This document shows, in pieces, positions 9,972 through 57,103 of a DNA stretch of 64,000 nucleotides; position 1 is the stretch's first letter; each line of letters begins with the position of its first letter. The stretch is taken from assembly GCF_003957375.1 (NCBI RefSeq), contig NZ_CP025473.1, positions 124,001 through 188,000 of the forward strand. Reading direction: 5' to 3'. Below the pieces are notes generated by a model. That model searched no databases and had not been told where the DNA came from. It saw nothing but the letters and a program-made list of their open reading frames with translations. Both the position numbers and the translations under genes were made by a program. The stretch comes from Enterococcus mundtii (GTDB taxonomy: Bacteria; Bacillota; Bacilli; Lactobacillales; Enterococcaceae).

Positions 9972-10001
9972 AAAGTCTGTCTTTTTTATCCTATTAATTT
10001 T

Positions 10002-10544
10002 TTAAACTAATTTTTGAATGTTGAATCGTAATCTTTTTCTTAAAGTAGTGCCAGCACAAGCCGCTCCAGTACTTTTGATCAACTCTGGCAACAAGAAGGG
10101 GAAGAACCCACTCAATAGAGCAGTTTGAACAGGCAAATGACTACTAAACGATAACCAAAGAGTTCCTACAGCTAAAGCAAGAAGAGAGCCGAATAGATTG
10201 GCACACCAAGCATGGAAAAAGCGAGAATTGGTCTTCTCAATCCACCAACCAATGACGAAAGACTGAAGAATAAAACCAAAAAGGTAGCCACCTGTTGGTC
10301 CAAATAAGATGCCCATTCCCCCAGTCATGCCAGAAAAGACGGGAAGTCCGATCAAGCCTAATAAGAGGTACAGACAAATTGCGAGAGTACCAGCACGTTT
10401 CCCAAGAAAAGTGGCGGTCAAGCCAATCGCAAAAGTCTGACCAGTAAGTGGAATCAATCCTAATGGAATAACAAATTGTGAAAGAATTGCAATGATTGCG
10501 GCAAATTCGGCAACGAGTATAAGTTCTTTTAATGATTTTGTCAT
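10002..10544 (-). CDS. bioY: Biotin transporter BioY
   Basis: 180-residue substrate-capture (S) component of an ECF-type biotin importer, with about six membrane helices. Family marks are PLTGQTFAIGLTATFLGKRAG near residues 36-56 and the GPTGGYLFGF motif near 82-91. It would use the shared ECF ATPase/T module encoded elsewhere. The ATG follows AAAGGAGAACGG. It is a single gene with its own promoter overlapped by a BirA operator, so it should be repressed when biotin is plentiful. Confidence 0.92.
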   Translation of the reverse strand: MTKSLKELILVAEFAAIIAILSQFVIPLGLIPLTGQTFAIGLTATFLGKRAGTLAICLYLLLGLIGLPVFSGMTGGMGILFGPTGGYLFGFILQSFVIGWWIEKTNSRFFHAWCANLFGSLLALAVGTLWLSFSSHLPVQTALLSGFFPFLLPELIKSTGAACAGTTLRKRLRFNIQKLV

Positions 10545-10557
10545 CCGTTCTCCTTTT

Positions 10558-10585
10558 GTTAACCTTTTTTATTTTTATGGTTAAC
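10558..10585. promoter_or_regulatory. BirA operator of bioY
   Basis: GTTAAC half-sites at 10558-10563 and 10580-10585 with 16 bases between them match the firmicute BirA operator pattern (GTTAAC, spacer, GTTAAC). The site begins three bases downstream of the -10 box, so bound BirA would block transcription start. Confidence 0.8.
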
Positions 10586-10588
10586 GAA

Positions 10589-10617
10589 ATTATAGAGGAA
10601 GAGAAAATAAATGTAAA
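10589..10617 (-). promoter_or_regulatory. bioY promoter
   Basis: On the minus strand TTTACA (10617-10612), a 17-base spacer and a perfect TATAAT (10594-10589). Confidence 0.8.
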
Positions 10618-10720
10618 GTCTCTTTATGGTATATTTTGAAAAAGCACATAAGAAGTAAGCGTACAAAAAAAATTTCCAAATGTGAGAAAAAGTATGAATA
10701 GCAAGTGTTTTGATACGTGA

Positions 10721-10726
10721 TATAAT
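10721..10726 (+). promoter_or_regulatory. Extended -10 promoter of the candidate RNA
   Basis: TATAAT at 10721-10726 is preceded by TGA, giving the extended -10 form TGnTATAAT; no good -35 box. It would start transcription near 10733. Confidence 0.55.
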
Positions 10727-10732
10727 TTTTAT

Positions 10733-11296
10733 ATAACATAATCAACTATATTTAAGCACATAGAAAAATGAGGATGATCATTCATGATCTTTCTACAGAT
10801 AGGTGCCCAACCTAGTCAATGAACTGGTTTGTTGCTTGAAAAGGCCAGTGAACATTCATCGTTTTGCCATGGGTAACAAAAAGCTGTTTGACGAATGAAT
10901 GTGCCAATAATCAACAACTGTGAAAGTGAGAAGTTAATATGTCTATCCACCATTGATAAAGGAAGAAATTAAGCAGTTGCTTGCTTAGAGGAAACATTTC
11001 ATTGAAAAAGCAATGATGCAAGACAGTTTATGAATTTTGAAGCATCACACTGTAGAGGACATGTTCTTTTCCTCATCTAAACCAATTGGGAAGTGGCAGT
11101 TAAAAGCTGTATCTTCAGAGAACAATTGAGAATATCAAAAACTTCGCTGTTTTATCACCCAAGTAGCGAATACAAATTGATTTCTCTTGCTATTGTTCGA
11201 GTCATGGATGCACCTGAACCTGCTAAAGCCAACATAAAAAGATAGCACTCGACTCAACGCAATACGTATGTTTTTTTGAGTTCTATCTTTTTATGT
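10733..11296 (+). ncRNA. Candidate large structured non-coding RNA, unassigned
   Basis: About 560 bases with no open frame, starting behind an extended -10 promoter and ending in a 14-bp perfect stem (11232-11245 with 11283-11296). Many local stems can be read directly: 10800-10804/10810-10814, ACTGG 10823-10827/10845-10849, a 10-bp stem 10852-10861/10892-10902, CTTGC 10980-10984/11018-11022 enclosing TCATTG/CAATGA, ACAGT 11023-11027/11049-11053, GAGGA 11055-11059/11070-11074, CAATTG 11083-11088/11123-11128 and TTCGCT 11143-11148/11165-11170. It is not RNase P RNA, tmRNA, SRP RNA or a T-box. Its size would fit the ROOL class, but I cannot confirm that. Confidence 0.5.
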
Positions 11297-11369
11297 ATGT
11301 CCGAGCGAAGAAAAGACACGGGGACATTATTTCTTATTACTTAGATCTATCCATCTTTTTCACAATCTA

Positions 11370-11405
11370 AAAAAACCAGCTATCCAAAAGATAGCCGGCT
11401 TTTTT
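11370..11405. terminator. Bidirectional terminator between the RNA and rpsD
   Basis: CCAGCTATC and GATAGCCGG pair around a 5-base loop with one mismatch; T runs occur on both strands. It lies 19 bases past the rpsD stop. Confidence 0.75.
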
Positions 11406-11423
11406 GTACCAAAGTTTGTTGAA

Positions 11424-12035
11424 TTATAGGCTTTGGTTGTAGTATTCAACGACAAGTGCTTCGTCGATTTCTGGGTACAATTCGTCACGTTCTGGTAAAC
11501 GAGTCAATGAACCTTCTAATTTTTCAGCATCAAAGCTTACGAATGCTGGACGTCCAACAGTTGCTTCAACTGCTTCTTTTACAGTTGAGATGTTTTGTGA
11601 TTTTTCACGAACTGAAATCACTTGACCAACTGCAACGTGGTATGAAGGGATATCAACACGTTTGCCATCAACCATGATATGACCATGGTTAACTAATTGA
11701 CGTGCTTGACGACGAGTAGTTGCAAGACCTAGACGATAAACAACATTGTCTAAACGTTGTTCTAGTAAGATCATGAAGTTAACCCCGTGTTTACCTTCTT
11801 TGATTTTGCTTGCTTTAACGAACAAGTTACGGAATTGACGTTCGTTCATACCGTACATATGACGTAATTTTTGTTTTTCAGTTAATTGCATACCGTATTC
11901 TGATTGTTTGCCACGGCTGTTTGGTCCATGTTGACCTGGAGCGTAAGGGCGACGTGCTAATTCTTTTCCTGTGCCAGATAATGAAATACCTAGGCGACGA
12001 GAAATTTTCCATGATGGTCCTGTATAACGAGACAT
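11424..12035 (-). CDS. rpsD: 30S ribosomal protein S4
   Basis: 203-residue primary rRNA-binding protein of the small subunit, also a repressor of its own synthesis in many bacteria. The start [21 protein letters not shown] and the S4 RNA-binding domain ([20 protein letters not shown] near 92-111) are typical. I placed the start at the ATG at 12035, preceded by TTGGAGG; the open frame extends 28 codons upstream but that part is leader RNA. It is a monocistronic gene with a strong promoter. Confidence 0.95.
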
Positions 12036-24240: not shown

Positions 24241-24358
24241 ACAACCTGATAAACAGTGTTCGAAAAGCTGACCTTCAACATTAAGCTAAAAAATTTGAAA
24301 ATATGAGAAGCTATTTCAAATTTCCTATTCTTACTGTTCAGGTCAGGACGCTTTTCTT
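24241..24358. repeat. 118-bp palindromic repeat, unit 1
   Basis: Begins ACAACCTGATAAACAGTG and ends where the next ACAACCT starts, exactly 118 bases later. GAAAAGCTGACCT (24262-24274) pairs with AGGTCA and GCTTTTC (24340-24345, 24350-24356), leaving a 4-base bulge. An inner AAATTTGAAATA-type stem fills the centre. Confidence 0.75.
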
Positions 24359-24476
24359 ACAACCTAGATAAACGGTGTTCAAGAAGCAACACTTCGGTCA
24401 CAAGCCAAAAAAATCAAAAATGAAACAGCCATTTTTGATTTTTTTGGCTTCTGCCTTAGTGTTAACCGCTTCCTTC
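24359..24476. repeat. 118-bp palindromic repeat, unit 2
   Basis: Same boundary and left end (ACAACCT, then GATAAACGGTGTTC). GAAGC plus AACACT pair with AGTGTT plus GCTTC, again with a 4-base bulge (AACC) on the right arm. A perfect 21-bp inner stem lies at 24402-24422/24430-24450. The right boundary ACAACCT (24477-24483) provides the last codons of treR. Confidence 0.75.
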
Positions 24477-35382: not shown

Positions 35383-35640
35383 AAAAAACGACCACTTTGT
35401 AGGTACAAAAGGGCCGCTAAATTTCACAGAGTGATAAACCTCTCACAAAACATAGCGCAACTTAGCATCACTGCTAAGACAGTCCGTAAGCTGTTAACTT
35501 ACGTCCCAACATACTTTTTAAGCAAAAAAAAGTACATTTCGGCGATCCTCCCTAGCCCTGCTTCCACATGTTTGCTCCACTCCACAGGTTTAATGATTCT
35601 CGCGACCTCTACCTCATTGATTGAGGCATCTCGTATTCAG
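35383..35640 (-). promoter_or_regulatory. Lysine riboswitch (L box) with terminator
   Basis: Reading the minus strand, conserved L-box blocks occur in order: GAGGTAGAGGTCGCGAG, then GGGAGGATCGCCGAA, then a GGGACGTAAG stem and GGACTGTC. A 13-bp terminator stem ending in TTTTTT follows at 35417-35383. The spacing of about 150 bases to the start codon fits transcriptional attenuation. This is a pattern match by eye, not a covariance-model result. Confidence 0.82.
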
Positions 35641-43432: not shown

Positions 43433-43525
43433 GTGAATCAGCTCGATGGACTCCTACTAACCAAATGAAAGGTGCAAAAGCTCGCTTTCGCGGTTTTCGT
43501 TTGTTTAGTAGCGTCTAGCGTTCAC
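43433..43525 (+). promoter_or_regulatory. Long imperfect hairpin in the pnp leader
   Basis: GTGAA/TTCAC, CTACTAA/TTAGTAG (43454-43460/43505-43511), then CAAATGAAA/TTTTCGTTTG and an inner AAAGC/GCTTT stem form one long arm ending ten bases before the pnp ribosome site. It could be a double-strand RNase target for autocontrol, as known for E. coli pnp; that role is inference. Confidence 0.55.
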
Positions 43526-43545
43526 GAGAAAGAAAAGGAGTATTT

Positions 43546-45656
43546 ATGTCAGAAAAACAAGTTTTTAAAACGACATGGGGCGGACGTCCCTTAGAGATCG
43601 AAGTTGGCCAATTAGCCAAACAAGCCAATGGAGCAGTATTAGTTCGTTATGGGGATACGGTCGTATTAAGTGCGGCAGTTGCTTCAAAAGAAGCGAAAGA
43701 TACAGATTTCTTCCCATTGACGATCAATTATGAAGAAAAAATGTATGCAGCTGGTAAGATCCCAGGAGGATTTATCAAACGTGAAGGTCGTCCAAGTACG
43801 GAAGCAACCCTGACTGCTCGTTTGATCGACCGTCCGATCCGTCCAATGTTTGCAGAAGGTTTCCGTAATGAAGTCCAAGTCACAAATATCGTGATGAGTG
43901 TAGAAACAGATTGTTCCCCAGCAATGGCAGCAATGTTAGGTTCTTCCCTAGCTTTATCGATTTCAGATATCCCTTCGATGGACCGATCGCAGGTGTTGAA
44001 GTTGGTCGTGTCAATGGTGAATACGTCTTGAACCCAACAGTTGAACAAGCAGAGACTACCGATATCGAATTAAGCGTAGCTGGTACAAAACAAGCAATCA
44101 ACATGGTTGAAAGTGGCGCGAAAGAAGTTTCTGAAGAAGATATGCTGGGCGCATTATTATTTGGATTTGACGCAATCAAAGAATTAGTCGCATTCCAAGA
44201 AGAAATCGTTCAAGCTGTCGGCAAAGAAAAAATGGAAGTTTCTTTATTACAAGTCGATGCTGATTTGAAAAAAGAAATTTTTGATGCATCGTATGGCACG
44301 ATGAAAGAAGCGGTCATGACAGAAGAAAAATTAGCTCGTGAAGAGAATATCGCCCAAGTAAAAGTCGATATTCGCGAAGCTTATGCAGAGAAATTTGCGG
44401 GTCATGAAGAGGAAGCGCAATTACTAAAAGAAGTAAAACAAATTACGGAAGATCTTGAAAAAGACGTCGTTCGTGAGTTGATCACGATTGACAAAATCCG
44501 TCCTGATGGTCGTAAATTAGATGAGATCCGTCCTTTAGCATCAGAAGTTGGCTTGTTGCCACGTGTTCATGGTTCTGGATTATTTACTCGTGGACAAACA
44601 CAAGCACTATCATCATGTACATTGGCACCTTTAGGGGAACACCAAATCATTGATGGCTTAGGTGTAGAAGTCAGCAAACGATTCATCCATCACTATAACT
44701 TCCCACAATTTTCTGTGGGTTCAACTGGTCGTGCCGGATCACCAGGTCGTCGTGAAATCGGTCATGGTGCATTAGGTGAACGTGCATTAGCACAAGTGAT
44801 TCCTTCAGAAGAAGAGTTTCCTTACACGATCCGTCTAGTGGCAGAAGTACTTGAATCGAATGGTTCATCTTCTCAAGCAAGTATCTGTGCAGGTACTTTA
44901 GCATTGATGGACGCAGGTGTGCCAATCAAAGCACCTGTAGCTGGTATTGCTATGGGATTAGTATCTGATGGTGAAAACTATACGATTTTAACAGACATCC
45001 AAGGTCTAGAAGACCATTTAGGCGACATGGACTTCAAAGTTGCCGGAACAAAAGATGGGATCACAGCACTACAAATGGATATCAAGATCCAAGGTATCAC
45101 GGAACAAATCTTAAAAGAAGCATTGGCACAAGCAAAACAAGCACGTATGGAAATCTTAGAAGAATTGACTTCAACGATTGCTACACCACGTGAAGAGCTT
45201 AGCCAATATGCACCGAAAATCGAAATGATCCAAATCGATCCTGCGAAAATCAAAGATGTCATCGGTAAAGGTGGCGATACGATCAATGGAATCATTGATG
45301 AAACAGGCGTGAAGATTGATATCGATCAAGACGGTAAAGTAAGTATTGCTTCTTCTGATAAAGAAATGATCCAAAAAGCAATCAAGATCATCGAAGATTT
45401 GACAAAAGAAGTCAAAGTTGGCGAAGTCTACCTTGGTAAAGTTGTTCGTATCGAAAAATTCGGTGCATTTGTCAACTTGATCAAAGGGAAAGACGGCTTA
45501 GTCCATATTTCTCAATTAGCGAATGAACGTGTAAACAATGTAGAAGACGTTGTAAAACTAGGCGATGAAGTGTTGGTGAAAGTGACAGAGATCGACAAAC
45601 AAGGCCGGGTGAATCTTTCAAGAAAAGCAATGTTGAACGAAGAGGACAAGAAGTAA
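43546..45656 (+). pseudogene. pnp: Polyribonucleotide nucleotidyltransferase, frameshifted as written
   Basis: 3'-5' phosphorolytic exoribonuclease; the full length would be 703 residues. [20 protein letters not shown] opens it. The first RNase PH domain carries [11 protein letters not shown], the second carries [20 protein letters not shown], and then come a KH domain ([19 protein letters not shown]) and an S1 domain ([20 protein letters not shown]). At 43971-43973 a C is missing (ATC CCC TTC expected), so the frame ends at 44031 while the correct frame resumes at [12 protein letters not shown]. Since pnp is rarely lost, a sequencing error is the simpler explanation. Confidence 0.92.
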
Positions 45657-48335: not shown

Positions 48336-48429
48336 TGTCGTTGTTAAGCAATGCTACAACCAACGTGACCAGAGCGACGGTAAACATACCAAAGCTGAGC
48401 ATCAATTGGACTGTATCGAGTGCCGACAA
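48325..48429 (-). CDS. Holin-like type I toxin, 34 residues
   Basis: Small hydrophobic peptide MSALDTVQLMLSFGMFTVAL followed by VTLVVALLNNDKKK: one membrane helix and a basic tail, matching the putative holin-like toxins of enterococci and lactobacilli. The TTG start is set by GAAAGGAG eight bases upstream; longer readings of the frame lack a ribosome site. It is opposed by a predicted antisense RNA. Overexpression of relatives damages the membrane; here the role is inferred from likeness. Confidence 0.75.
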   Translation of the reverse strand: MSALDTVQLMLSFGMFTVALVTLVVALLNNDKKK

Positions 48430-48728
48430 AAGGCGTCTCCTTTCATAAGAGTTAGAAAGTATGGGCATACGCACCACCTCACTTGCGGAAGGATAGCCAT
48501 TTTCATTGAACTGTACTGTCACATAATAGCATAGCACATGCGCACATTTTAAACCTTAATTAATAAATTTCTTGTTATTGAATAGCTGTTGAATGTTAGT
48601 GACACAAGTGAATAAATCCTTCCATTATTTAGAGTGATCTAGTGGGAGAAGCAGAAATCAAAAGCCTCCTAGTTATACTCTTTTTACGAAAAGTTGTACA
48701 ATTAAAATGGAAAAGTGAGGCGAAACAA

Positions 48729-56867: not shown

Positions 56868-57103
56868 TATGCGACGGGTCGAGAAGATCTCTGAACGTTA
56901 GAGGTCTAATTGATTTTGGCGGCACATGATCCACGGATCACCTACCGGATGTAGGCGTGCTGGACAAGACTTTTGTGGAGAAGGACTTGTCTGTCTGATT
57001 CTTTCAGGCACCAGTGAGTGGCGAACAGAAATGTTCAGCACTCAAAAAAAGCAGGGATTCCCAAATTTGCTAGTCAAATTTTGTGGAGTTCCTGCTTTTT
57101 TGT
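56868..57103 (+). ncRNA. Candidate structured RNA, about 230 bases
   Basis: Behind an extended -10 box (TGTTAAAGT, 56853-56861) comes a gene-free stretch with a chain of clean hairpins: 56885-56892/56900-56907, TGATCC 56927-56932/56935-56940, CCTAC 56941-56945/56951-56955, GACAAG 56963-56968/56986-56991 and GAACA 57023-57027/57032-57036. A strong terminator ends it. It is not an RNase P, SRP or tmRNA by eye. It could be a stand-alone RNA such as 6S, or a riboswitch for the next gene. Confidence 0.45.
57047..57103 (+). terminator. Terminator of the candidate RNA
   Basis: AAAAAGCAGG pairs with CCTGCTTTTT and AAATTTG with CAAATTT inside, followed by T residues. Confidence 0.85.

What the first reader, a model, noticed from the sequence alone, without database searches (positions are those of the whole stretch)
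10733..11296. Large gene-free segment that reads as an unassigned structured RNA
About 560 bases between bioY and rpsD carry no frame, yet begin behind an extended -10 promoter and hold at least eight local stems readable by eye, several of 6-10 bp, closed at the 3' end by a 14-bp perfect stem whose loop contains another 6-bp stem and a T7 run. It does not look like RNase P RNA, tmRNA, SRP RNA, a T-box or a riboswitch for a neighbour, since both flanking genes face away or have their own promoters. Its size matches ornate large RNA classes such as ROOL, which is inference. If it is not a known class, it is the best candidate here for something new.
Basis: partly seen in the sequence, partly recalled or inferred. 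Interest (0 to 1): 0.8.

Follow-up and report, generated by a model that had tools for sequence, protein, structure and literature searches.

The report
Lineage-specific large structured RNA gene
Between two ordinary Enterococcus genes lies what looks like a roughly 550-base RNA gene, seen so far only in E. mundtii and two close relatives, whose overall fold appears to have been kept although more than a third of its letters have changed, and which matches no listed RNA family.

Summary
The main observation holds. Window 10733-11296 has no conserved frame, starts behind an extended -10 promoter and folds better than 100 of 100 shuffles. No Rfam family reaches its cut-off there; ROOL, GOLLD, OLE and raiA are absent even at E<=10. 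It is not ROOL: a true ROOL lies elsewhere in the same genome.

Homologues sit at the same bioY-rpsD site in 3 of 15 genus and 3 of 105 family genomes; the named one is E. mundtii. The RNA is only 327/528 identical to E. mundtii, yet the two independently predicted ensembles share a long-range closing stem and a terminal hairpin beyond 0 of 150 and 0 of 140 shuffled controls; the minus strand and bioY do not. Ordinary covariation tests are weak, as only three sequences exist.

Best reading: an independent non-coding RNA gene, probably a trans-acting regulator showing an invariant motif on a fast-changing scaffold. Transcription, target and function are untested.

The parts
10601..10717 (+). 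conserved upstream (regulatory) region of the RNA gene, shared side with the bioY promoter
   Evidence: window 10601-10750: 144 of 149 aligned bases identical to E. mundtii, against 437 of 498 over 10001-10500 (bioY); no second full copy in 15 genus genomes, only short partial matches
10718..10726 (+). extended -10 promoter (TGaTATAAT); start of transcription inferred near 10733
   Evidence: sequence; 10707-10753 (47 nt) identical in all three genomes
10733..10753 (+). invariant 5' leader
10768..10806 (+). left arm of the long-range closing stem P1 (holds TCTACAG)
   Evidence: predicted independently in window and E. mundtii and in all three folds
10915..10979 (+). core hairpin, CAACTGT (10915-10921) with GCAGTTG (10973-10979)
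   Evidence: RNAalifold on three sequences; all seven pairs never vary, so covariation is silent
10941..10959 (+). invariant motif GTCTATCCACCATTGATAA, its loop part predicted mostly unpaired in the window, less so in the other two
   Evidence: identical in all three; unpaired probabilities
11042..11076 (+). right arm of P1 (holds CTGTAGAG)
11245..11283 (+). conserved terminal hairpin (11245-11252 with 11276-11283) with small inner stem
11232..11296 (+). 14-bp perfect stem around the terminal hairpin (11232-11245 with 11283-11296); in window and G004, 3' arm absent in E. mundtii
10002..10544 (-). neighbour bioY (divergent)
   Evidence: Pfam BioY 6.1e-39
11424..12035 (-). neighbour rpsD (convergent); its terminator is at 11375-11405
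   Evidence: Pfam Ribosomal_S4 3.7e-27; terminator-like site on the + strand at 11379-11395

Best explanation
Window about 10733-11296 (+) is an independent non-coding RNA gene of the E. mundtii group. Shown by computation: it has a conserved extended -10 promoter with about 100 conserved bases upstream; its product can close a domain of about 235 nt with a long-range stem (P1) and end in a hairpin; these are found independently in sequences only 62% identical; and a 19-nt motif inside the domain is invariant. Inferred: it is transcribed, and it works in trans, the fast-changing helices serving as a scaffold that presents the invariant motif (UCUAUCCACCAUUGAUAA) to a partner, most likely by base pairing with mRNA, less likely by protein binding. 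That it is a real RNA gene I put near 0.85; that it acts in trans through the motif near 0.4.
For: Three carriers at one site; promoter 47 nt identical and upstream 144/149 identical against 437/498 in bioY; RNA 327/528 identical. Stability: window z -2.67 (0 of 100), G004 z -4.41 (0 of 100), E. mundtii z -1.64 (5 of 100). Overlap of independent ensembles 20.8 against column shuffles of mean 2.0 (0 of 150) and run-preserving shuffles of mean 2.7, largest 15.8 (0 of 140); long-range part 26.2 against mean 1.0 (0 of 140). Minus strand 8 of 60 and bioY 6 and 59 of 60 shuffles reach the exact overlap. In P1, TGAGGA/TCCTCA of the window reads GAAGGA/TCCTTC in E. mundtii: two of six pairs changed on both sides, with a wobble in G004 at one. 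No frame kept, no Pfam family over cut-off in 10 translated pieces.
Against: Only three sequences. RNAalifold on the sequence alignment is weak: z -1.31, 7 of 60 shuffles; minus strand 14 of 60; its covariation term is unfavourable (+3.35) though 19 of 154 pairs change on both sides. In a joint fold-and-align the score beats 47 of 47 shuffles, but the number of shared pairs does not (11 and 4 of 47 as high) nor that of doubly changed pairs (13 and 5 of 47). Counted on named helices 4 of 41 pairs change on both sides (9 of 500 shuffles), 26 of 41 never vary, and the helices were drawn from the same alignment. One block shuffle reached 25.5 against 26.2 on the long-range measure. E. mundtii alone is only modestly stable. 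The motif's complement has no convincing start-site target. No expression data seen.
Confidence: 0.5

Rival explanations
1. The RNA is a structural or ribonucleoprotein scaffold, like the ornate large RNAs OLE or ROOL, and works through its fold or by assembling with itself or a protein rather than by pairing with mRNA.
For: Size about 560 nt, long-range stem, strong fold in G004 (z -4.41); no start-site target found for the motif.
Against: Sequence turns over quickly (327/528 identical) and the interior fold is not shared, whereas ornate classes are recognised by deep conservation of sequence and pairing (my recollection, and passages of PMC12286853); no relative in 105 family or 295 order genomes.
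Confidence: 0.25
2. A local regulator tied to biotin: the RNA or its transcription acts on bioY (shared upstream region) or on birA, whose downstream flank carries 14-16 nt matching the invariant motif on its minus strand.
For: Divergent arrangement with bioY and a BirA-operator-like palindrome at 10558-10585 (motif recalled; letters). CCACCATTGATAAA is shared with the minus strand just past the birA terminator in all three genomes; the gene is a biotin protein ligase by Pfam.
Against: The match is not significant: 15 of 400 shuffles of the region score as high, and the region was picked after the fact. It lies beyond the birA terminator, so it need not be in birA mRNA. bioY is also beside rpsD without the RNA in 10 of 12 non-carriers.
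Confidence: 0.1
3. No functional RNA: a decayed gene or mobile remnant between bioY and rpsD, the conserved part being only the bioY promoter region.
For: RNA body much less conserved than its upstream region; absent in 12 of 15 genus genomes; sequence-alignment RNAalifold weak.
Against: Structure overlap on the + strand only; invariant 47-nt promoter-leader block and 19-nt motif; no Pfam match over cut-off, no phage or plasmid match, one copy per genome.
Confidence: 0.15

Closest known systems
ROOL RNA (RF03087)
   Same: similar length (574 model positions); single gene-free RNA locus; all three carriers of the new RNA also carry a ROOL
   Different: no match to the ROOL model, no sequence similarity to the ROOL of the same genome, no tRNA in the 64-kb window
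RNAIII of Staphylococcus (recalled; not compared by a direct search here beyond the Rfam scan)
   Same: about 500 nt, multi-stem, with short invariant motifs on a variable body: a likeness of working style only
   Different: no Rfam RNAIII match; no frame kept; no agr-like neighbour among the flanking genes looked at
sRNAs mapped in E. faecalis and E. faecium (PMC7724050, passages seen)
   Same: intergenic RNAs of unknown class in the same genus group
   Different: longest predicted there are 432 and 416 nt; the paper's text holds no mention of bioY, rpsD or mundtii

Membership tests
ROOL (RF03087) | match to the covariance model | tested here: not met
   no match over gathering nor at E<=10; the genome's ROOL is elsewhere
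ROOL (RF03087) | often in prophage or near tRNA islands (PMC12286853 passage) | tested here: not met
   ARAGORN finds 0 tRNA in the window; neighbours are bioY and rpsD. Not an obligatory feature.
ROOL (RF03087) | assembly into a nanocage | not testable with these tools
   needs experiment
GOLLD, OLE, raiA and every other Rfam 15 family | covariance-model match | tested here: not met
   no match over gathering in 10733-11296; at E<=10 only 11 weak hits over 10600-11420, best 22.8 bits against a cut-off of 50
riboswitch or leader of a neighbour | lies upstream of, and in the same direction as, the gene it controls | tested here: not met
   bioY and rpsD are both on the minus strand; the RNA reads +
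independent non-coding RNA gene | own promoter | tested here: met
   extended -10, 47 nt identical in three genomes; by sequence only
independent non-coding RNA gene | conserved structure with compensating changes | tested here: inconclusive
   fold overlap strong; compensating changes few
independent non-coding RNA gene | a transcript | not testable with these tools
   no expression data at hand

The most novel reading that the evidence does not exclude
A new class of large structured RNA, confined to the E. mundtii group, whose scaffold helices are rewritten between species while its regulatory promoter region and a 19-nt recognition motif stay fixed; it may tie into biotin control through birA and bioY, and its carriers also hold ROOL.
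Probability: 0.15. Interest if true: 0.65.

Novelty: new member of a known kind. Interest (0 to 1): 0.42.

Why it matters
Large bacterial RNAs of unknown function are few. A roughly 550-nt RNA gene that appears in one small species group, with a fold kept over 38% sequence change, would be a case for studying how such RNAs arise and how a fixed motif and a changing scaffold share the work. E. mundtii RNA-seq already exists (PMC7671544, DRA009597, passage seen), so transcription can be checked at once.

Tried and rejected
Rejected: ROOL or another Rfam class; decayed protein gene (the two sub-threshold Pfam hits, E 0.048 and 0.03, are below cut-off); riboswitch for a neighbour (orientation); spread by phage or plasmid (no match; IMG/VR promoter pattern 0 matches). 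The 18-nt motif occurs in 5 IMG/VR contigs, and its 19-nt form in one Methylococcaceae MAG besides E. mundtii, without flanking similarity, hence chance.

Wider relatives: (E. mundtii query) lists 47 of 105 genomes at E<=0.1, but all except the three carriers are short matches at E>=3.5e-4; I looked at 11 of these loci, and the recurring one in one genus sits at a protein start. One search lists 23 of 105 at E<=1; apart from the three (E<=1.9e-18) the best is 0.0043; I looked at 9 of the other loci: 8 lie in long frames, one (L070) mostly outside one; 3 of 295 at E<=0.01, the same three.

Weak or negative on structure: RNAalifold by column shuffle (sliding windows from z -2.53 to +1.53), joint fold-and-align pair counts. 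Targets of the motif: pattern with wobble and up to 2 mismatches gives 15, 12 and 14 matches (self included) against 6, 7 and 7 for the reversed pattern; of nine further G000 loci and four fetched stretches (three orthologous) none is a convincing start-site target. Relic of the promoter in empty sites: none of the 4 sites long enough to test exceeds shuffles (6 too short). birA link: not significant.

Papers: no description of this RNA turned up in searches (listings only; subscription journals largely missing). Passages only were seen of PMC7724050, PMC12286853 and PMC7671544.

An earlier count gave the empty-site spacing as 141-542; the recount is 138-539.

Full report
What is there. The stretch between bioY (10002-10544, minus; Pfam BioY) and rpsD (11424-12035, minus; Pfam Ribosomal_S4) is 879 bases long. 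Within 10733-11296 the longest start-to-stop frame is 50 aa. An extended -10 element, TGaTATAAT at 10718-10726, stands in front without a good -35, which puts the start near 10733 (inference). The 557-nt piece 10740-11296 folds at -139.6 kcal/mol, z -2.67, 0 of 100 shuffles as stable.

Known families. The Rfam scan of the window gives four matches over gathering, none here. A permissive scan of 10600-11420 up to E 10 lists 11 weak hits, none a large RNA class and the best 22.8 bits against a cut-off of 50. ROOL was tested directly: 5 of 15 genus genomes have it over the cut-off, including this one at G000:C1:2149473-2150048 (207.3 bits), far from the window at 124001-188000. ROOL and the new RNA show nothing better than E 0.27 by blastn. 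So the genome holds both.

Relatives. By DNA search 3 of 15 genus genomes have it (G000, G004, G008), at the same site. G008 is E. mundtii: the pattern scan of named genomes found the motif in NZ_PUAP01000047.1, a contig of the same length, 39112. A model of the 90-nt core finds the same three at E<=1.9e-18 in 105 family genomes, next best 0.0043, and only these three at E<=0.01 in 295 order genomes. Phage and plasmid collections have no match. In 10 of the 12 non-carriers bioY starts 138-539 nt from rpsD; in two (G001, G011) bioY was not in the fetched stretch. The unit was therefore gained in, or kept only by, the E. mundtii group (inference).

Conservation pattern. Against G004 the RNA is 538/565 identical; against E. 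mundtii 327/528. bioY (10001-10500) is 437/498 identical to E. mundtii, the region 10601-10750 is 144/149, and 10707-10753 is identical in all three. So the promoter region is more conserved than the neighbouring protein gene and far more than the RNA body. The region has no second full copy in 15 genus genomes, only short partial matches, and no relic in the four empty sites long enough to test. Inside the RNA, GTCTATCCACCATTGATAA (10941-10959) is identical in all three.

Structure. Each sequence was folded alone and the ensembles compared through a sequence alignment. The exact overlap is 20.8 pairs against 2.0 on average for column shuffles, 0 of 150, and 2.7 for shuffles that keep the runs of identity, 0 of 140, largest 15.8. 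Pairs over more than 150 columns: 26.2 against 1.0, 0 of 140, largest 25.5, so one shuffle came close. The minus strand (8 of 60 as high) and bioY (6 of 60 and 59 of 60) show no such excess. The shared pairs are a long-range stem P1 (10768-10806 with 11042-11076) and a terminal hairpin (11245-11252 with 11276-11283), plus a short hairpin of two pairs near 11003-11012. P1's CTACAG/CTGTAG has pair probabilities of 0.98 or more in all three. At its outer end the window's TGAGGA/TCCTCA is GAAGGA/TCCTTC in E. mundtii and TGAGGA/TCCTCG in G004: two of six pairs changed on both sides, under a structural placement of the left arm that the sequence alignment does not give by itself.

Limits of the structure. 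RNAalifold with column shuffles gives only z -1.31 (7 of 60) and a similar value on the minus strand (14 of 60). The consensus has 19 of 154 pairs with changes on both sides but an unfavourable covariation term, +3.35. Joint folding and alignment beats all 47 shuffles on score in two settings, which partly reflects the stability of the single folds, but not on the number of shared pairs (11 and 4 of 47) or doubly changed pairs (13 and 5 of 47). On named helices 4 of 41 pairs are doubly changed (9 of 500 shuffles), 26 never vary, and the helices came from the same alignment. E. mundtii alone has z -1.64 (5 of 100), G004 -4.41 (0 of 100). I therefore claim P1 and the terminal hairpin, not the interior. 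The 14-bp 3' stem is in the window and G004 but its 3' arm is lacking in E. mundtii; the T7 run is GTTGTTTT in G004. The exact 3' end is unsettled.

Coding. Of 12 frames of 20 aa or more none has a clear counterpart in E. mundtii; the best scores 56 against a self-score of 214, across the conserved core on the minus strand. Ten of 15 translated pieces of 30 aa or more were scanned against Pfam: two sub-threshold hits, none over cut-off.

Function. The motif's loop part is predicted mostly unpaired in the window and partly paired in the other two. Its complement, wobble and two mismatches allowed, gives 15, 12 and 14 matches in the three genomes against 6, 7 and 7 for the reversed pattern; of those looked at none is a convincing start-site target. 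The longest shared one, 14-16 nt, lies just past the terminator of birA (Pfam BPL_LplA_LipB and BPL_C) in all three, in a stretch that is nearly identical between them. It is tempting, since bioY flanks the RNA, but 15 of 400 shuffles score as high, so it is a lead only. I commit to a trans-acting RNA with an invariant motif on a variable scaffold as likeliest (0.4), a structural or protein-bound RNA next (0.25).

Verdict. A probable new RNA gene of a known kind (lineage-specific structured intergenic RNA), not ROOL.

Noticed in passing
G000:C1:2149473-2150048 (L061), outside the window: A true ROOL RNA (207.3 bits); ROOL is in 5 of 15 genus genomes, among them all three carriers of the new RNA.
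   Followed up: partly
window 35445-35619 -, 43516-43695 -, 48354-48538 -, 56870-56983 +: Rfam matches over gathering: lysine riboswitch, rliD, rli28, Ref68.
   Followed up: no
window 10558-10585: Palindrome GTTAAC-N16-GTTAAC in front of bioY, BirA-operator-like (motif recalled; letters).
   Followed up: no
window 10642-10650 and 10754-10762: 9-nt direct repeat AAGCACATA on either side of the promoter, 112 nt apart.
   Followed up: no
L114 574-720, L115, L116: Stretch downstream of birA nearly identical in three genomes, followed by a 13-nt minisatellite (TTCTATGTTTTAG) of varying length.
   Followed up: partly
L002 2150-2720; window 24251-24265 and 24370-24384: Repeated element with TTCACAACCT..GATAAACGGTGTTCAAAA and long hairpins beside the RNA in G004; 3 window matches to its core with up to 2 mismatches, 0.58 expected.
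   Followed up: partly
L003 424-945 (-) and 1165-1211 (-): In E. mundtii a frame with a sub-threshold Flavin_Reduct match (21.9 bits, cut-off 27) and a long perfect-looking hairpin lie between the RNA and rpsD.
   Followed up: partly
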